64,000 nucleotides of DNA from Solwaraspora sp. WMMD791 (GTDB taxonomy: Bacteria > Actinomycetota > Actinomycetes > Mycobacteriales > Micromonosporaceae): contig NZ_CP120737.1 in assembly GCF_029581195.1 (NCBI RefSeq), positions 6,177,001 to 6,241,000 on the forward strand. Direction: 5' to 3'. How positions within the stretch are numbered: the first letter of the stretch is position 1; every line of letters begins with the position of its first letter. The translations under genes and the position numbers were made by a program. This document shows positions 35,991 to 45,379 of the stretch, piece after piece. The notes under the pieces were generated by a model. That model was not told the origin of the DNA. It was given only the letters and a program-made list of their open reading frames with translations, and searched no databases.

Positions 35991-37316
<1,326 letters not shown>

Positions 37317-37409
37317 GATCTCCTCACGGAAAGTTCGGTCCCCGGGTCCCATCGTCCATCAATGACGCGGCAGGGCAACTCCCGGGTTCGTGCCTGAACG
37401 GAGGTAACG

Positions 37410-37527: not shown

Positions 37528-38829
37528 TCATCCGGACGTCACCGAGGGTGCCGGGGTCGGGGTGCCCCCACCGGACTGGGCCGGTGCCGGCGACCCGGAC
37601 CGCTGCTTCGGCGCGAGATCGGCCGGCACCGGCAGCGCGCTGCCCTTGACGAACTCGTCCCAGGTCAGGTTCCACGCCGTCCACCCGTTACCGTCGGCCA
37701 GCTTGCGCTCGGTCCCCTTGACCGTGATCGGATCACCGACCTTGGTCTGACTGAACAGCCACTCCGCGTTCGCCATCGACAGGTTGACGCAGCCGTGCGA
37801 CACGTTGCGTACCCCCTGGTCACCGACCGACCACGGCGCCGCGTGAATGAACTCACCGCCCCAGGTGATCCGCTGAGCGAACGAGATGTCCGTCCGGTAA
37901 CCCTCCTCCGGGCCAAGCTCGGCGAACGTGTCGAAGACCGTCTGCGCCTGCTTGTCCATCACCACCATCGTGCCACTCGACGACGGCGTACTCGGCTTGC
38001 CGAGACTCACCGGCATCTGCTTGACCAGCTTGTCGTCCTTGAACATCGACAACTGCTTGGTGGCGTTGTCCACCTCCATCGTCACCTTGCCGCCGATCGT
38101 GGCGGTGGCCCCGCGGTCCTGGTCGCCGTACCGGCCGTCACCCGTCGGATGCCCACCGAGCGCGATCCGCGCGGTCAGCTTGGTGCCGGGCTGCCAGTAG
38201 TCCGGCGCCCGGTAGAACGCCTGACTGCCGTTCGCCACCCAGTACCAGGTGCCCGGCTGCGGCGGGTCGGTCGAGACGAACATCCGCTTCTGCACGTTGG
38301 CCCGCTCCTTCTCCGGAACGCCCGGGAAGAACTCCACCACCACCGGCATCGCCACCCCGTACGTACGCCCGTCGAACAGGTAGAGCCCCGTGCCGGTCTG
38401 CGACCCGGACTTGCCCATCGTGCTGAACGTGGTGGTCTTCGTCTCCTCGTCCCCGGAGGCGCTCGTCGCGACCACCGTCGCCGTGTACTTCTTGTTGTTC
38501 TTCAACGGCTTGTCCGGCACCCAGGAGGTACCGTCGTCGCGCATGCTGCCGCTGACCTCGCCGCCGCCGTCCTCGACGAGCGTCACCGAGGTCACCTCCC
38601 CACCGCTGACCGAGGTGCCGATCTCCGTGCTGATCGGCAGATCCTTCGCGTCAGCCTCCGGCGAGATGGCGAACTCGAACGGTTCCGGCGGCGGAGTCGG
38701 ACTCGCCGACGCCACCTGACCGCTGACGAACCGTGGTGCCTCCTTGTCCGCTCCGCACCCTGCCAGTGCGGCCGGTGCGATGACTGCCAGTGTCATCGCG
38801 ACCGACCAACCCCTCCTGACCCTGTCCAT
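37528..38829 (-). CDS. L,D-transpeptidase lipoprotein (YkuD domain), copy 2
   Basis: A 433-residue paralogue of the neighbouring gene with the same order: lipobox LAGC (Cys25), two Ig-like domains and a YkuD domain with SHGCVNLS (Cys near 347). The two share long conserved stretches in the YkuD domain (VSLGKP.TPSSSGTM, TWGGEFIHAAPWSV). ATG 38829 is preferred to an upstream in-frame ATG because GGGGA lies before it and the signal peptide then has normal length. The tail is Pro/Ser/Gly-rich, without the Thr-Asp repeat. Same direction, 211 bases apart: a tandem duplication. Confidence 0.94.
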   Translation of the reverse strand: MDRVRRGWSVAMTLAVIAPAALAGCGADKEAPRFVSGQVASASPTPPPEPFEFAISPEADAKDLPISTEIGTSVSGGEVTSVTLVEDGGGEVSGSMRDDGTSWVPDKPLKNNKKYTATVVATSASGDEETKTTTFSTMGKSGSQTGTGLYLFDGRTYGVAMPVVVEFFPGVPEKERANVQKRMFVSTDPPQPGTWYWVANGSQAFYRAPDYWQPGTKLTARIALGGHPTGDGRYGDQDRGATATIGGKVTMEVDNATKQLSMFKDDKLVKQMPVSLGKPSTPSSSGTMVVMDKQAQTVFDTFAELGPEEGYRTDISFAQRITWGGEFIHAAPWSVGDQGVRNVSHGCVNLSMANAEWLFSQTKVGDPITVKGTERKLADGNGWTAWNLTWDEFVKGSALPVPADLAPKQRSGSPAPAQSGGGTPTPAPSVTSG

Positions 38830-39015
38830 CCCAGTCCCCGTTCCTTGTTGCGTCCCTGCCGACATCGTGCATCACCCGCTACGCCCTTCGTGCCTGATCC
38901 GGAAGGGTGCCAGATCCGTGCACGTGGGCAGGTCGGCCGGACAGTCGGCTCGTACCCGGCAACCGGTTGGAAGACGGGCGGGCCGCCGTGCTACGGTTGC
39001 CGACGTTGTCAGCGA

Positions 39016-39091
39016 GCGCCGCTAGCTCAACTGGCAGAGCAGCGGACTCTTAATCCGCGGGTTGTAGGTTCAAGTCCTACGCGGCGTACCA
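39016..39091 (+). tRNA. tRNA-Lys (anticodon CTT)
   Basis: Complete cloverleaf: acceptor GCGCCGC/GCGGCGT, anticodon loop CTCTTAA, T-arm GTAGG-TTCAAGT-CCTAC, discriminator A and encoded CCA (39089-39091). Its 3' half plus flanking sequence is repeated, decayed, at 42698-42761. Confidence 0.97.
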
Positions 39092-39099
39092 GACAACAA

Positions 39100-39138
39100 G
39101 GCCCCGACCAGGCGGTTTCCGCCCGGTCGGGGCCTTTT
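39100..39138 (+). terminator. Rho-independent terminator of tRNA-Lys
   Basis: GGCCCCGACC (39100-39109) pairs with GGTCGGGGCC (39125-39134), followed by TTTT. Its 5' arm is part of the repeat shared with 42749-42758. Confidence 0.88.
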
Positions 39139-39513
39139 GCCGTACGCCGCACCGCCGGCCGGGTGTTCGCCGGGCGCTCCACGGACCGGCGAAGTCGGGG
39201 AGCACCAGTCCGGTCCACGTCCTGTGGGGTTGGCCGAGGCGCGCGGGGCGGAGTCTCTCCGGTACCCGGCGTTCTGCAGCCGGCCTGGTGGGCGTTCGAA
39301 TGCCAGGTGGCGTAGGTGTCCGGATGACCAGGTGCTCAAGGCTGACTCTCGACGGCAGCCCGGCGAGCCAGCCGACCCCGGTGCTGCACCTCGGTGGCGT
39401 GCCTGACACGCAGGCCTGGCGGTACGGGCCCGGTGCCGCGCGGACGACGCCGGGAGGACCTAGGGCCATGGTCGGCGTTCGGAACCCTGTGTCGACCCAC
39501 TGAGACCCGAGAT
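39139..39513. other. Non-coding stretch at the left end of the tRNA-Lys island
   Basis: About 375 GC-rich bases with no frame that looks coding on either strand and no recognisable integrase remnant. It ends at the operator palindrome of the XRE-ImmA gene, so it should contain that promoter; I cannot place a -35/-10 with confidence. Confidence 0.4.
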
Positions 39514-39528
39514 GTGCGATTATCGCAC
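39514..39528. promoter_or_regulatory. Palindromic operator at the XRE-ImmA start
   Basis: GTGCGATTATCGCAC is a perfect 7-1-7 palindrome ending one base before the ATG at 39530. Such a site suits binding by the dimeric XRE domain and autorepression. It also argues against the in-frame ATG at 39512, which would lie upstream of it. Confidence 0.6.
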
Positions 39529-39529
39529 C

Positions 39530-40630
39530 ATGGCTGGGGAACAGCAGGACTGGCACCGCATCGGGGAGCAGGTGCGGCAGGCGCGTCTGTCAGTAGGCAT
39601 GTCGCAGCAGGACCTTGCCGATCGCGTGGGGCTGGATCGAACCATGCTGGCGAAGGTTGAGGCTGGTAGCAGGCGCCTCGACGCGGTCGAGCTGTCGCGA
39701 CTGTCCCGTGCGCTCGAGGTATCGATGGAGTATCTGATCGAGCCGCGGCCAGCGGTGCTGTCCCGGCGGTCTGCGGTACTGACGGAAGAGACAGACACCG
39801 AGGCGGCGCGGTCTTCTGAGCGCTTGGAGATCGCTTTGGTCGGCTGGCTGCGTGATGTGCAGCAACTGGTAGACATCGGCTCTCTGCAGACGGTTCCGCT
39901 ACTTCGTTACCCGGGTACGGTGACATCTGAGACTGATGCGAGGCAAGCGGCGCACTGGTTGCGGCAGCAACTTCATCTTGGCGATGAACCGATTGGTAGC
40001 ATCACGGAGATTTGTGAGCGTGCAGGGCAGTGGGTCCTTGTAGCTGATCTGCCAGGCGATGGTGCGTCCCTTATCCAGGGGGAGGTGGCTGTTGCGGTGG
40101 TGAGCGCACAAGGCGATCCTGGCCGTCGACGAGCTACCGCCGCACATGAGCTTGGACATTTGGTTATTGGAGACGAATACTCCAGTGACCTGGGAGTCAG
40201 CACGTCTCGCGCGGAGCGCGAAGGGGTGATCGACGCATTCGCTGCTGAGTTGCTGTTACCGCTCAACGCCATGACCGGCTCCCCGAATGATGGGCGCGTG
40301 AGCCGGGATCTGCTGATTGCCTACGCCGCTCGATACCGTACCTCCTGGTTGTTGGCATTACGTCAGGCTGAGCAGGCCGGGGTAATTGATGCTGCGACAC
40401 GTCGGGCCTGGAGCTTTCCGCGGCCCACTCGGGCAGAGTTCATGGAGGCTCTAGGCTGGGTGCCTCAGCCCGATCTTGCCTCGGTGCGTGTGCCACCGGG
40501 CTATGCGCATGCGGTGATCGAGGCGTGGCGGGCCAGTCGAATCACTCGATCTAGGGCGGTCGAGTTGATGTACGGCCAGATCGCCGATGCGGACCTGCCT
40601 GATGAGGATGACCTGGAGACCGCTCCGTGA
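39530..40630 (+). CDS. XRE-family regulator fused to ImmA/IrrE metallopeptidase
   Basis: A 366-residue protein. The N-terminal XRE helix-turn-helix (about residues 7-60: IGEQVRQARLSVGMSQQDLADRVG ... LAKVEAGSRRLD) binds DNA. The central ImmA/IrrE domain has HELGH (His206, Glu207, His210) and the IDAFAAELLLP helix, which supplies the third zinc ligand. A C-terminal helical region follows. Such proteins cleave or inactivate a partner repressor or toxin on a signal. Its stop overlaps the PIN gene start (GTGA), typical of an antitoxin-toxin pair. Codon use is freer than in the flanks, consistent with transfer. Confidence 0.88.
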   Translation: MAGEQQDWHRIGEQVRQARLSVGMSQQDLADRVGLDRTMLAKVEAGSRRLDAVELSRLSRALEVSMEYLIEPRPAVLSRRSAVLTEETDTEAARSSERLEIALVGWLRDVQQLVDIGSLQTVPLLRYPGTVTSETDARQAAHWLRQQLHLGDEPIGSITEICERAGQWVLVADLPGDGASLIQGEVAVAVVSAQGDPGRRRATAAHELGHLVIGDEYSSDLGVSTSRAEREGVIDAFAAELLLPLNAMTGSPNDGRVSRDLLIAYAARYRTSWLLALRQAEQAGVIDAATRRAWSFPRPTRAEFMEALGWVPQPDLASVRVPPGYAHAVIEAWRASRITRSRAVELMYGQIADADLPDEDDLETAP

Positions 40631-41175
40631 GTCTGCCGATGCCGCCGGGTTCGGTCCTTGTGCTCGATACGATGCTCTTGTATCACTTTGCCCTTGCTGA
40701 CCGGCTGGACGTCCTGCGCGATCTGCTTATGGATGCTGACTGCTGGACAACGCGGGTGGTCATGGAGGAGTTGCGGTCGGGAGCTGTGAACCGACCAGAG
40801 CTGATGGCTGCCTGTGAGGTGGACTGGCTGAAGCGAGCTCAGCTGGACACTCTTGATGAGATTCGATGCTTCACCGTGTGGGTCAGAAGACTTGGTGCTG
40901 AGGAGCGCCATCTCGGTGAGGCATCCGTCCTCGCTGCTGCTGAGCTGCGGAGAGGTATCGCAATCACGGATGATCGGCAGGCCACCAAGGTCGCCCGTGC
41001 CTACCGGGCGGAAGTGCATGGCACGATCTGGCTTCTCGCTGCAGCTTGTCGGACCGGCAAACAGACTGAGGTGGGTGCGGGCAACCTCATCGACGCATTG
41101 AGAGCGACGAGTGCTCGTCTACCCTGCTCGGGTGCAGACTTCTCGGCCTACGCCCGTAGGCATCACCTGCTATAA
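40627..41175 (+). CDS. PIN-like domain protein, putative toxin partner of XRE-ImmA
   Basis: A 182-residue protein with a PIN-type nuclease pattern: VLVLDTMLLYHF (Asp14), VVMEELRSG (Glu48), HLGEASVLAAAEL (Glu98) and IAITDDRQATKVARAY (Asp115/Asp116), in the order and spacing of the four acidic residues. PIN nucleases cut RNA, often tRNA or mRNA, as toxins. The GTG start overlaps the XRE-ImmA stop, so the two are made together. The C-terminal 60 residues are outside the core fold. A hairpin follows at 41210. The RNA target is unknown. Confidence 0.75.
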   Translation: MSLPMPPGSVLVLDTMLLYHFALADRLDVLRDLLMDADCWTTRVVMEELRSGAVNRPELMAACEVDWLKRAQLDTLDEIRCFTVWVRRLGAEERHLGEASVLAAAELRRGIAITDDRQATKVARAYRAEVHGTIWLLAAACRTGKQTEVGAGNLIDALRATSARLPCSGADFSAYARRHHLL

Positions 41176-41209
41176 GACGTCTACACGAGACCGGAGTCGG
41201 AGTGTTACC

Positions 41210-41257
41210 GGCACCTGCCGGGGAGAGCGCAGGTGTCGCTCTCGCCCGGCAGATGCC
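41210..41257. terminator. Bidirectional hairpin between convergent island genes
   Basis: Arms 41210-41229 and 41237-41257 pair over about 20 bases with one mismatch and one bulge, loop CAGGTGT. It lies between the convergent PIN and nuclease genes and probably ends both transcripts. Confidence 0.65.
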
Positions 41258-41325
41258 GTGAGAAGGGCGCGGGTGCCTCGCGTCTGATCCTGCCTCGAAC
41301 CAGGCTGTCGGGTTCGCGTCGAGTC

Positions 41326-42441
41326 TCAGCGGTTCTTGTCGCCGCCGTCGCCCATGAATGCTCTAACTGCAATCCGTATCGCTTCCGCATGCAGATAAAT
41401 GTCGTCAAGCGAGCTGATCAGATGGCGAGTCTCGGTCTTGTCGGCATCGAAGGTCCCGATGTATTTTCGGGATTTTCCATTGAAGTGCAGCCGCGCTATG
41501 GGCTTGCGGTTGTTGTCGTCGAGAATGATCGCGAAGTATGACTTCGCATCGCGGCCCACGACGCGTTGGGGCTTCACGTCGCTACACGCGATCGCCTTGA
41601 CGATCTGATACCCGGTCAATTCCTCGAGTGTGGTGTCGACCTCTGTGTCGCGTGCGACGTCGCCGAGTGCAACCACCTCGCTTTCAATCGCCTCGGGATT
41701 CGCTTCAACGGTCTGCCCGGGAAGGTTCGCGTGGAGTGCGCCCTTCAGTCGTTCGTTCACCTTGTCCCTGATGAACTGGGAGGCGGCCTTGGCGACAATC
41801 GGCCGGAACTGCTCCCGCCTCTTCTGGGTCAGTGAGCCATCATACACTTTGCTGGCGAAGAATCGGATCCATTCGTCCTCGGGATCCTCGAACTGCTTCG
41901 CCATCGAACGCTTGATCTGTCCGAGGTACTTCAGTTCTTCGGCAGCGCTGATGATGGAATCGAGATCGAAAACTTCCTTTGTGAGCTTTCGCAACTCCGG
42001 CAGGAGGGTGTCGTCGATATCATCCAGGTCGAGTATGAGGAAGGGCTTGGTGTCCATCTTGTTAGGTGCGTCGAGGTCGGTGTAGAAGTGGTAGACCTGA
42101 CCGTTGGTGAGGATGGCGATGCGGGCATTCGTAACTGAGAAGTACCGATAGAGTTGAGACGCGTGTTCGATCCTCAGTGGGTCGCGTGGCTGCTTGCATT
42201 CGATGAGAATTTGCACCTCACCGGCGTGCATGATCGCGTAGTCGACCTTCTCGCCTTTTTTGGTCCCGACGTCAGCGGTGAACTCCGGTATGACCTCCAG
42301 TGGGTCGAATACGTCGTAGCCGAGAATCATCGAGATGAACGGCATGACGAAAGCGTTCTTGGCGGCTTCTTCCGTCTGAATCGCGTCCCGCTGATTTTTG
42401 ACCTTTGTGGCGAGGGCGGCGACCCGTTCATCGAATTCCAT
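41326..42441 (-). CDS. Stand-alone HsdR-N-type restriction nuclease
   Basis: A 371-residue protein with a PD-(D/E)XK fold like the N-terminal nuclease of type I restriction subunit HsdR. KVDYAI (Asp67) and VQILIECKQP (Glu81-Cys-Lys83) form the catalytic site, and SQLYRYF gives the QxxxY motif (Gln96, Tyr100) of that family. No helicase motifs are present, and no methylase or specificity gene lies nearby. The C-terminal half (about 230-371) has a small beta domain (YFAIILDDNNRKPIARLHFNG). ATG complementary to 42439-42441 follows AAGGAG. The moderate G+C sets it apart from the chromosome. It is likely phage-derived or a defence effector. Confidence 0.82.
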   Translation of the reverse strand: MEFDERVAALATKVKNQRDAIQTEEAAKNAFVMPFISMILGYDVFDPLEVIPEFTADVGTKKGEKVDYAIMHAGEVQILIECKQPRDPLRIEHASQLYRYFSVTNARIAILTNGQVYHFYTDLDAPNKMDTKPFLILDLDDIDDTLLPELRKLTKEVFDLDSIISAAEELKYLGQIKRSMAKQFEDPEDEWIRFFASKVYDGSLTQKRREQFRPIVAKAASQFIRDKVNERLKGALHANLPGQTVEANPEAIESEVVALGDVARDTEVDTTLEELTGYQIVKAIACSDVKPQRVVGRDAKSYFAIILDDNNRKPIARLHFNGKSRKYIGTFDADKTETRHLISSLDDIYLHAEAIRIAVRAFMGDGGDKNR

Positions 42442-42697
42442 GGAGCAGACTCCTTGTCGTCGGGCGGGTGGAAGGGGCGCCATGAATTTCCGGTAGTTCT
42501 ATGATTGGAACTGGGCATCCCCGGCGTCGACCGGATTTTACTGGCCGGTTGCGGGGTGTGATGCCCCGAAAAGAGACCGAGCGATCCCACTTTCCGTCAG
42601 TTCTGCGCGTCGGAAAGGGCAGGTTTGCAAGGCTCCTGGTTATGACTAGGATGCGCTACCGGTATGCGCCCTTCACGGGTAGCCACAGGCCAAGACC

Positions 42698-42761
42698 TCA
42701 ATCCGCAGGGCATAGGTTCACGTCCTTCGCGGGAGTACCAGACGACAAGGCCCCGACCAGG
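42698..42761 (+). repeat. Decayed copy of the tRNA-Lys 3' end (att-like repeat)
   Basis: Matches the anticodon-loop to CCA part of tRNA-Lys and about 20 bases of its terminator arm. No 5' half of a tRNA precedes it; 42442-42697 holds the nuclease promoter region and nothing else I can name. It lies just beyond the valS 3' end, with a weak hairpin to 42780 that may serve valS. Confidence 0.75.
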
Positions 42762-42823
42762 CTCTTCGGCCCGGCCGGGGCATGAGTCGTCGCCGTACTA
42801 CCGGCGTGCTCGACTGTTCGCTG

Positions 42824-45379
42824 CTACACCGTCACCAGGGTGCTCAGGCCCGGCTCGTCGGCTTCCTCGGTGCCGAGCTGGTCGACCCGACCGGCGGCCC
42901 GCAGATCGTCGGCGACGCCGCCGAGTGCGACCAGCATCGCCGGCTCGGCGCGGACCAGGACCTTCGAGACGTCCGCCCGCATGGACAGCTTCGCTTCCGA
43001 CTTGGCTTTGCGGATCGCGGCGATCACCTGGCTGGCGACGGTCAACGCGGTGGCGTCGGCGCCATCGACCGCCGTACGCAGCTCGTCACCCGTCGGCCAG
43101 GCGGCCCGGTGCACCGTGCCGGTGCGCCACCAGGACCACACTTCCTCGGCGACGAAGGGCAGGAACGGCGCGAACAGCCGCAGCAGCGTGGCCAGGGCGG
43201 TGGTCAGCGCCGCGCGGGCGGACTCGGCCGGGGCGGAGCCGCGTTCGCCGTACCCCCGGCTCTTGGCCAGCTCCAGGTAGTCGTCGCAGAACCGCCAGAA
43301 GAACTGCTCGATGCGCTCCAGGGCGCGGGCGTAGTCGTAGCCGTCCAGCGCGGTCGTGGCGTCGTCGACCACGCTGGCCAGCTCCGCCAGCATCGCCCGG
43401 TCCAGCGCTTCGGTCACGGTGGCCGATTCGGCGGGAGCACCCAGGCCGAGCACGAACCGGCTGGCGTTGAGGATCTTCATCGCGAGCCGGCGACCGACCT
43501 TCATCTGCCCGGTGTCGAACGCGGTGTCGGTGCCGGGCCGGCCGTTGACCGCCCAGTAGCGGGCCGCGTCGGATCCGTACTCCTCCAGCAGCGCCAGCGG
43601 AGTGACGACGTTGCCCTTGGATTTCGACATCTTCTTGCGGTCCGGATCCAGGACCCAGCCGGAGATCGCGGCGTGCGACCAGGGCAGGCTGTCATGCTCC
43701 AGATGCGACCGTACGACGCTGGAGAACAGCCAGGTCCGGATGATCTCGTGCGCCTGGGGGCGCAGGTCCATCGGGAACACCCGCTGGAACAGGTCGTCGT
43801 CGGTGCCCCACTTGCCGGCGATCTGTGGGGTCAGCGAGGACGTCGCCCAGGTGTCCATGACGTCCGGGTCGCCGACGAAGCCACCGGGGGTTCCCCGCTG
43901 CCCGGCCTGGTAGCCCGGCGGGGTGTCCACGCTGGGGTCCACCGGCAGCATCGCCTCGTCAGGCAGGATCGGCTGGTCGAGGACCGGCTCGCCGTGCTCG
44001 TCGAGGGGATACCAGACCGGGATCGGCACGCCGAAGAACCGCTGCCGGCTGACCAACCAGTCCCCGGTCAGGCCGCCGACCCAGCTTTCGTAGCGGGCCC
44101 GCATGTACTCCGGCTGCCAGGCCAGCTCCCGGCCCCGGCTCAACAGAACCTCCCGCAGCTCGGGTTCCCGACCCCCGTTGCGCAGGTACCACTGCCGGGT
44201 CGTGACGATCTCCAGCGGCTTGTCGCCGCGCTCGTAGAACTTCACCGGATGCGTGATCTTCTCCGGCTCGCCGACCAGGTCGCCGCAGGCGCGCAACAGC
44301 TCCACCACCCGTTCCCGGGCGGTGTGCATGGTGGCCCCGACCAGCTGGGCGTAGACCGTGCGTCCCTGCGGGTCGTCCAGGCCGGGCGGCGGGTCGGCCA
44401 GCACGCGGCCGTCCCGGCCGACGATCGGCCGGGTGGCCAGCCGCAGCTCGCGCCACCACAGCACGTCGGTCAGGTCGCCGAAGGTGCAGATCATGGCGAT
44501 GCCGGTGCCCTTGTCGGGGGCCGCGAGCCGGTGCGCGGTGACCGGGACCTCGACCCCGAACAGCGGGGAACGGACGGTGGTGCCGACCAGGTCGCGGTAC
44601 CGCTCGTCGTCCGGGTGCGCCACCAGCGCCACGCACGCCGGCAGCAGCTCCGGTCGGGTCGTCATGATGTGCACCGGGGTGCCGTCCGGCCGGTGGAACG
44701 CCACCCGATGGTGCGCCCCGGGCCGCTCCCGGTCCTCCAGCTCCGCCTGGGCGACGGCGGTCCGGTAGGTGACGTCCCAGAGCGTCGGCGCCTCCGACAG
44801 GTACGCCTCACCGCGCGTGACGTTGCGCAGAAACGCCCGCTGCGACACCCGCCGTGAGTCGGCGTCGATGGTCTGATAGGTCAGCTGCCAGTCGACCGAC
44901 AGCCCCAGCCGCCGCCACAGCTGCTCGAACACCTGCTCGTCGGCGACCGTCAGCCGCTCGCACAACTCGATGAAGTTGCGCCGGGACACGCCGAGCTCCG
45001 ACGTGCCGGGCCGCTCCGGTGGAGTGAAGTCCGGGTCGTACGGCAGGGACGGGTCGCAGCGCACCCCGAAGAAGTTCTGCACCCGACGCTCGGTGGGTAG
45101 GCCGTTGTCGTCCCAGCCCATCGGATAGAACACCGCCTTGCCCCGCATCCGCTGATAGCGGGCGATGACGTCGGTGTGGGTGTACGAGAACACGTGACCG
45201 ACGTGCAGCGACCCGCTCACCGTGGGCGGCGGCGTGTCGATGGCGTACACCCCGGCCCGGTCGGCGGACCGGTCGAACCGGTATACGCCCTGCTCCTCCC
45301 AGCGACGCGCCCACTTGTCTTCCAGCCCGTTCAACGACGGTGCCGACGGCACGGCGAAGCCCGCAGAGGTGTCAGTCAT
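42824..45379 (-). CDS. valS: Valyl-tRNA synthetase, archaeal-like type
   Basis: An 851-residue class I synthetase that charges tRNA-Val. The HIGH-equivalent is GSLHVGHV (about residues 56-63), KMSKSKG lies near 583-589, and the CP1 editing domain (TRPELLPACVALVAHPDDERY) removes Thr-tRNA. TPPPTVSGSLHVGHVFSYTH and GWDDNGLPTERR match the archaeal/alpha-proteobacterial style of ValRS rather than the common bacterial form with PPPNVTG and DHAGIATQ. It may be the only ValRS or a second, inhibitor-tolerant copy. The C-terminal coiled-coil arm of many bacterial ValRS appears absent. Confidence 0.92.
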   Translation of the reverse strand: MTDTSAGFAVPSAPSLNGLEDKWARRWEEQGVYRFDRSADRAGVYAIDTPPPTVSGSLHVGHVFSYTHTDVIARYQRMRGKAVFYPMGWDDNGLPTERRVQNFFGVRCDPSLPYDPDFTPPERPGTSELGVSRRNFIELCERLTVADEQVFEQLWRRLGLSVDWQLTYQTIDADSRRVSQRAFLRNVTRGEAYLSEAPTLWDVTYRTAVAQAELEDRERPGAHHRVAFHRPDGTPVHIMTTRPELLPACVALVAHPDDERYRDLVGTTVRSPLFGVEVPVTAHRLAAPDKGTGIAMICTFGDLTDVLWWRELRLATRPIVGRDGRVLADPPPGLDDPQGRTVYAQLVGATMHTARERVVELLRACGDLVGEPEKITHPVKFYERGDKPLEIVTTRQWYLRNGGREPELREVLLSRGRELAWQPEYMRARYESWVGGLTGDWLVSRQRFFGVPIPVWYPLDEHGEPVLDQPILPDEAMLPVDPSVDTPPGYQAGQRGTPGGFVGDPDVMDTWATSSLTPQIAGKWGTDDDLFQRVFPMDLRPQAHEIIRTWLFSSVVRSHLEHDSLPWSHAAISGWVLDPDRKKMSKSKGNVVTPLALLEEYGSDAARYWAVNGRPGTDTAFDTGQMKVGRRLAMKILNASRFVLGLGAPAESATVTEALDRAMLAELASVVDDATTALDGYDYARALERIEQFFWRFCDDYLELAKSRGYGERGSAPAESARAALTTALATLLRLFAPFLPFVAEEVWSWWRTGTVHRAAWPTGDELRTAVDGADATALTVASQVIAAIRKAKSEAKLSMRADVSKVLVRAEPAMLVALGGVADDLRAAGRVDQLGTEEADEPGLSTLVTV

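What the first reader, a model, noticed from the sequence alone, without database searches (positions are those of the whole stretch)
39050..42761. tRNA-Lys island carrying an XRE-ImmA/PIN pair and a lone HsdR-N nuclease
The 3' half of tRNA-Lys and 20 bases of its terminator recur 3.6 kb downstream in decayed form, with three lower-G+C genes in between. All three have defence or addiction character, and no integrase is present. Such a compact, integrase-less cargo block at a tRNA is a candidate new defence island. The two operons converge on one hairpin terminator.
Basis: partly seen in the sequence, partly recalled or inferred. Interest (0 to 1): 0.72.

Follow-up and report, generated by a model that had tools for sequence, protein, structure and literature searches.

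The report
Two defence-like modules beside a tRNA
A variable spot next to a lysine tRNA gene carries a two-gene toxin-antitoxin-like pair and, separately, a stand-alone nuclease whose relatives often sit right behind the lysogeny repressor in temperate phages; it is an accessory locus built from known kinds of parts, but what the nuclease does is still open.

Summary
In detail: tRNA-Lys, three lower-G+C genes and a decayed copy of the tRNA 3' half plus terminator are there, and the same arrangement is in one of the six other genomes of the genus searched. The block is accessory DNA in a variable spot (2 of 7 genomes). A clean tRNA integration is doubtful: some 85 bases of the tRNA's own flank, shared by the genus, lie between tRNA and cargo. 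Low G+C of the HsdR-N gene is a family trait (80 of 80 loci), so it does not mark an insertion. The three genes look like two independent modules: (1) XRE-ImmA + PIN, together in 23 of 25 further loci, of the RosmerTA / Xre-COG2856-PIN kind; (2) a solitary HsdR-N nuclease (PHROG 4225), without that pair in 18 other family loci. Of 50 viral records searched, 23 have an S24-repressor match, and in 14 of these the nuclease gene lies within 142 bases downstream on the same strand (random placement 2.7). Best reading: an addiction/defence pair plus a prophage-type exclusion nuclease taken up by the chromosome. Functions are inferred, not shown.

The parts
39016..39091 (+). tRNA-Lys(CTT), intact
   Evidence: ARAGORN; Rfam
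39092..39178 (+). tRNA terminator and flank shared by the seven genomes of the genus before the sequences part
   Evidence: by eye; by BLAST the 39 bases 39141-39179 match G001, G002, G005 and G006, not G003 or G004, at E<=0.001
39512..40630 (+). XRE + ImmA/IrrE-type (Peptidase_M78) protein, HELGH zinc motif intact; probable antitoxin/regulator
   Evidence: Pfam HTH_3 5e-13, Peptidase_M78 3e-10; PADLOC RmrA 3e-25; motif in the translation
40627..41175 (+). PIN-type protein; probable toxin nuclease
   Evidence: PADLOC PDC-S70 9e-12; Pfam PIN 0.014 and DUF3368 0.0036, both below cut-off; 7 of 13 family members match each at E<=0.01; D14, E48, E98, D115 invariant in 13 sequences
41209..41258 (.). 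GC hairpin between the convergent genes
   Evidence: no T-run terminator found
41326..42441 (-). solitary HsdR-N nuclease, 371 aa
   Evidence: phrog_4225 endonuclease 3.5e-120, HSDR_N 3e-10; D67, E81, K83, Q96 invariant in 44 sequences; AlphaFold model pLDDT 87; DrdV first and an HsdR fragment fifth in Foldseek, none at E<=0.001
42508..42660 (-). upstream block conserved with the HsdR-N gene at other sites in the family: inverted repeat and -10-like TAAAAT; probable promoter/operator
   Evidence: promoter-like hit 42562-42535
42697..42781 (+). decayed copy of the tRNA-Lys 3' half and terminator

Best explanation
The block is accessory cargo in a variable spot downstream of tRNA-Lys. It holds two unrelated modules that arrived separately, or were joined once before G000 and G003 parted. 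Module 1 (XRE-ImmA + PIN) most likely works as a RosmerTA-like toxin-antitoxin pair: the XRE-ImmA protein represses the operon and holds the PIN nuclease inactive; a trigger, perhaps phage infection, releases the PIN, which cuts RNA and stops growth. Module 2 is a stand-alone PD-(D/E)xK nuclease with its own promoter block. In many of the temperate phages examined its relatives are the gene directly behind the lysogeny repressor, so they would be made in the lysogen; the simplest role is exclusion of incoming foreign DNA, and the chromosomal copy would be a taken-over exclusion gene. Shown: gene content, repeat, variability, separateness of the modules, conserved putative catalytic residues, repressor linkage in phages. 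Inferred: toxicity, trigger, nuclease activity, exclusion.
For: Variable spot. Separateness: no relative of the window's XRE-ImmA or PIN in 18 HsdR-N loci of 7-13 kb; no HsdR-N in 25 PIN loci of 10-15 kb. Pair together in 23 of those 25. RmrA and PDC-S70 matches. S24 match 34-142 bases upstream, same strand, in 14 of the 23 records with an S24 match (14 of 50 searched); random placement averages 2.7 within 1000 bases, 9 at most in 2000 trials. In 8 of 10 phage regions read, a repressor or regulator lies within three genes upstream on the same strand. Fold and invariant residues.
Against: No activity, toxicity or phage phenotype was found for these genes. 27 of 50 viral records have no S24 match and 9 of 23 have it more than 1 kb away. 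Integrase proximity is not above random (6 of 36 within 2.5 kb, random 6.4; 14 of 36 within 5 kb, random 10.3). In the Porphyromonas phage read, the gene lies beside HicAB and tail genes. In genus g12 and many Curtobacterium genomes it is syntenic, which also fits a resident role. The PIN assignment of the window's protein is below Pfam cut-offs and its single-sequence model failed (pLDDT 46). Without a methylase, how HsdR-N spares host DNA is unexplained.
Confidence: 0.6

Rival explanations
1. The whole 3.6 kb is one integrated element (a reduced prophage or satellite) that entered at tRNA-Lys by an integrase now lost; HTH + ImmA and HsdR-N are its old lysogeny module.
For: Repeat of tRNA 3' half plus terminator at both ends in two genomes. 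Three of ten phage regions read (H4, H8, H13) have an annotated metallo-protease next to the same nuclease gene.
Against: About 85 bases of flank shared by the genus lie between tRNA and cargo (by eye). The XRE-ImmA/PIN pair and the HsdR-N gene occur apart elsewhere, HsdR-N with its own upstream block. The two are convergent here; in those three phages the genes run the same way.
Confidence: 0.2
2. The three genes form one new defence system at a tRNA.
For: They lie together in G000 and G003. In the family sample 7 of 20 genomes with a strong HsdR-N match also have a PIN match, 3.8 expected; two of the seven are G000 and G003.
Against: Apart in the 18 HsdR-N and 25 PIN loci examined; in the other five genomes that have both, they lie on other contigs or far apart. 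Convergent transcription.
Confidence: 0.04
3. HsdR-N is a resident DNA-processing or repair nuclease, not a defence gene.
For: Syntenic in 21 of 21 pairs of genus g12 and 75 of 120 Curtobacterium pairs; 56 invariant columns in 44 sequences.
Against: Patchy: strong match in 20 of 250 family genomes; synteny rare in Nocardiopsis (1 of 45) and Microbacterium (1 of 36); poorer in G+C than its flanks in 80 of 80 loci; behind the repressor in many viral records.
Confidence: 0.15

Closest known systems
RosmerTA (RmrT/RmrA) and Xre-COG2856 with PIN (PMC10440598 and PMC2701414; passages seen by term search, not the whole papers)
   Same: HTH + ImmA/M78 protein beside a small toxin-like gene; PADLOC RmrA match; passages of both papers report association of such proteins with PIN domains
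   Different: The partner here is of the PDC-S70 type; I found no toxicity or anti-phage test of this pair
PDC-S70 (PADLOC candidate; PMC12988326, passages seen)
   Same: PIN-domain family, E 9e-12
   Different: described there among single-gene candidates; here beside XRE-ImmA, as in 23 of 25 other loci
PHROG 4225 endonuclease; proteins annotated 'type I restriction endonuclease' of about 360 aa
   Same: full-length match and length
   Different: chromosomal copy with its own conserved upstream block, not behind a repressor
HsdR of type I restriction enzymes (and the DrdV nuclease)
   Same: HSDR_N match and nuclease-like fold
   Different: 371 aa, no helicase match, no HsdM or HsdS gene in the block; a small beta domain follows instead

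Membership tests
RosmerTA / Xre-COG2856-PIN pair | HTH plus ImmA/IrrE metalloprotease protein | tested here: met
   HELGH in the translation
RosmerTA / Xre-COG2856-PIN pair | adjacent conserved toxin gene | tested here: met
   XRE-ImmA beside PIN in 23 of 25 other PIN loci examined, of 47 genomes with a match in the family sample
RosmerTA / Xre-COG2856-PIN pair | toxin poisons cells and is neutralised by the ImmA protein; anti-phage activity | not testable with these tools
   bench assay needed
PIN domain family | profile match and acidic active-site residues | tested here: inconclusive
   own protein under the Pfam cut-off, 7 of 13 relatives at E<=0.01, invariant acidic residues (their role is recalled); model failed
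Type I restriction-modification | HsdR with helicase, plus HsdM and HsdS | tested here: not met
   371 aa, no helicase match; the other two genes are XRE-ImmA and PIN
PHROG 4225 stand-alone endonuclease | full-length profile match and conserved residues | tested here: met
tRNA-integrated genomic island | direct repeat of tRNA 3' end at both ends | tested here: inconclusive
   repeat present but genus-wide flank lies inside the left end
tRNA-integrated genomic island | integrase in the element | tested here: not met
   three genes, none an integrase
prophage superinfection-exclusion gene | sits in the lysogeny operon of temperate phages | tested here: met
   for part of its relatives, not for this copy:
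prophage superinfection-exclusion gene | blocks infection of the lysogen | not testable with these tools
   plating assay needed

The most novel reading that the evidence does not exclude
The stand-alone HsdR-N family (PHROG 4225) is a widespread single-gene exclusion nuclease not yet described as such: made with the lysogeny repressor, it destroys incoming DNA without a partner methylase by a recognition principle of its own (the C-terminal beta domain), and bacteria have repeatedly adopted it as a chromosomal gene with its own promoter.
Probability: 0.35. Interest if true: 0.6.

Novelty: new member of a known kind. Interest (0 to 1): 0.35.

Why it matters
The island claim itself is ordinary. 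What could matter is the nuclease: a large family, common in viral contigs, named only by its HsdR-like N-terminus, without a solved relative by profile search, and often directly behind the lysogeny repressor. If it excludes incoming DNA without a methylase, its way of telling self from foreign DNA would be new and testable with one gene in a laboratory strain.

Tried and rejected
A conserved RNA upstream of HsdR-N: Rfam on 38900-42900 gave only the tRNA above a gathering score; RNAalifold on 10 sequences gave an unfavourable covariation term (+1.02), 4 of 23 pairs with a two-sided change; I favour a promoter/operator. That block elsewhere: 9 of 250 genomes match the one version used as query; 8 places lie at an HsdR-N gene, the ninth (G186) is a 32-base match; the query missed G003, G102 and G135, which have it, the last two in part, by eye.

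PIN pair in phages or plasmids: no close PIN relative in viral contigs (pattern scan, close relatives only) and none in plasmids; XRE-ImmA has 14 distant phage records, below 30% identity, 2 of them covering 80% of the query.

Solved relatives: none by profile for either protein. The PIN model from one sequence failed. Script one search found 3 of 80 HsdR-N frames because its motif was too strict; one search found 79 of 80.

Literature: searches (listings only) showed me no paper on the stand-alone HsdR-N gene as an exclusion gene; the library lacks most subscription papers. One search (tRNA-Lys islands) listed nothing on these genomes.

Changed on checking: the repeat copy is 42697-42781, not 42701-42785; the shared flank is about 85 bases in G000 and G003 (about 105 in some others), not 110; 'Glycomyces-like' was my guess for the unnamed genus g12 and is dropped.
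Full report
Observation. The tRNA-Lys gene, the three genes and the second copy are real. The copy (42697-42781) matches the tRNA from the anticodon arm through the terminator at 82.6% over 86 columns and is the best further match to the query in the genome. The same three genes and repeat are in G003, where the genes are 95%, 97% and 92% identical in DNA, close to the neighbouring valS (94%) and above the neighbour on the tRNA side (88%). So the block is about as old as the split of these two genomes.

Site in relatives. I searched the seven genomes held for the genus, own one included. HsdR-N: 2 of 7. The PIN gene at this site: 2 of 7; G006 has an 83% relative elsewhere, and weaker relatives lie elsewhere in G000, G002, G003 and G006. 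Between tRNA-Lys and valS, G002 has about 8 kb, G006 17.6 kb and G001 27 kb of other genes; in G004 the two lie about 760 kb apart, and in G005 they are 4.8 kb apart with the tRNA turned relative to valS. G005 is nearest to G000 at the tRNA side (tRNA region 99%, neighbouring gene 97%) and in valS (95%) and has neither HsdR-N nor PIN. None of the seven gives a true empty site. Transposase-like genes are seen by eye in the G001 and G005 regions (not tested).

Boundary. After the tRNA the seven genomes keep a common flank (terminator, then a G+C-rich stretch) before the sequences part: about 85 bases in G000 and G003, about 105 in G005 and others (by eye). By BLAST the 39 bases past the terminator are found in G001, G002, G005 and G006, not in G003 or G004. 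Of two genomes of genus g11, G072 keeps a similar flank and G053 does not (by eye). In an integration into the tRNA this flank should stand behind the right-hand copy. A duplicated or captured tRNA fragment is therefore as good a reading as an att site, unless all seven descend from one old insertion.

Module 1. The XRE-ImmA gene overlaps the PIN gene by 4 bases. PIN relatives occur in 47 of 250 sampled family genomes. I fetched the 20 best loci outside the genus and 5 further ones in it: 19 of 20 and 4 of 5 have XRE-ImmA directly upstream; the two misses (L142, L051) have truncated or weak PIN matches. PADLOC names the parts RmrA and PDC-S70. Passages of PMC10440598 describe RosmerTA systems with ImmA-type antitoxins and an association of that domain with PIN-like domains; passages of PMC2701414 list COG2856 with PIN partners and fused Xre-COG2856 proteins in operons with PIN or RelE. 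The pair is a member of a known kind.

Module 2. HsdR-N matches PHROG 4225 over its full length. In the family sample 20 of 250 genomes have a strong match and 6 a weak partial one. I fetched 18 loci outside the genus (a second copy in G135 was not fetched): none has the XRE-ImmA/PIN pair; eight of them, of genus g12, share one setting, the others differ, with some shared neighbours between G038 and G072. G102 has a small unrelated HTH gene directly upstream (by eye). Two genomes of g11 have HsdR-N 3.9 and 5.3 kb from tRNA-Lys, and G007 has it about 430 bases from a tRNA-Ser. The genome-collection scan found 349 matching stretches, 80 kept, in actinobacteria, proteobacteria and others. G+C is below the flanks in 80 of 80 kept loci, mean difference -9.3 points, and in the 20 family copies; low G+C is a trait of the gene. 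Pairs with both flanks homologous: g12 21 of 21, Curtobacterium 75 of 120, Cryobacterium 22 of 55, Brevibacterium 2 of 10, Nocardiopsis 1 of 45, Microbacterium 1 of 36, Brachybacterium 0 of 3.

Phage context. I read 10 of the 18 phage regions: in 8 a repressor or regulator lies within three genes upstream on the same strand, in 6 an annotated integrase follows, in 3 a metallo-protease adjoins; H9 bears no informative names and H5 (Porphyromonas) has HicAB upstream. The 8 not read are a second record of the same phage as H4, three more Porphyromonas phages and four records without annotation. In 50 viral records, 23 have a PF00717 match and in 14 it lies 34-142 bases upstream of the nuclease gene on the same strand, with nine different spacings; some of the 14 are near-duplicates. 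Random placement gives 2.7 on average, 9 at most in 2000 trials. The same test for integrases (36 records with a match) shows no clear enrichment. Of eight upstream proteins that I chose for scanning, five are HTH or S24 proteins and three match nothing.

Structure. The model (mean pLDDT 87, pTM 0.57) has an N-terminal nuclease-like domain, a helical middle, a low-confidence linker (240-267) and a small beta domain. Foldseek's best match is DrdV (E 0.005); other restriction-endonuclease-like proteins and an HsdR fragment (3h1t, E 0.07) follow; none reaches 0.001. D67, E81, K83 and Q96 are invariant in 44 sequences; that these are PD-(D/E)xK and QxxxY residues is recalled knowledge.

Promoter block. 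Some 70-220 bases upstream of the window's HsdR-N, a block with an inverted repeat and a TA(A/G)CAT-like box is shared with copies at other sites (13 sequences, the most distant in part; 10 aligned) and goes with the gene (8 of 9 matches). This fits a gene that travels with its own promoter.

Verdict. An accessory spot with two known kinds of module. The nuclease family is the part worth bench work.

Noticed in passing
window 35991-37352 and 37528-38865: Two L,D-transpeptidase-like genes (name by eye) in tandem, 74% identical in DNA over 735 aligned columns, one beside tRNA-His and one beside tRNA-Lys; the two tRNAs recur about 3 kb apart in G003, G053 and G072.
   Followed up: partly
window 42508-42660 (minus strand): Block conserved upstream of HsdR-N at other sites, with an inverted repeat and a -10-like box; may be an operator for an unknown regulator.
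   Followed up: partly
L262 2690-6119: On a Kocuria plasmid a relative of HsdR-N lies beside a DUF4041 gene and near a RES-domain gene.
   Followed up: no
L126 and L127: In another genus HsdR-N also lies a few kb from tRNA-Lys with other neighbours, so this tRNA region may be a recurrent spot across genera.
   Followed up: partly
L161-L240: The HsdR-N gene is poorer in G+C than its flanks in 80 of 80 loci, with flanks from about 44% to 75% G+C.
   Followed up: yes
L066: In G005 the tRNA-Lys is turned relative to valS, with an IS-like gene pair between them (by eye).
   Followed up: no
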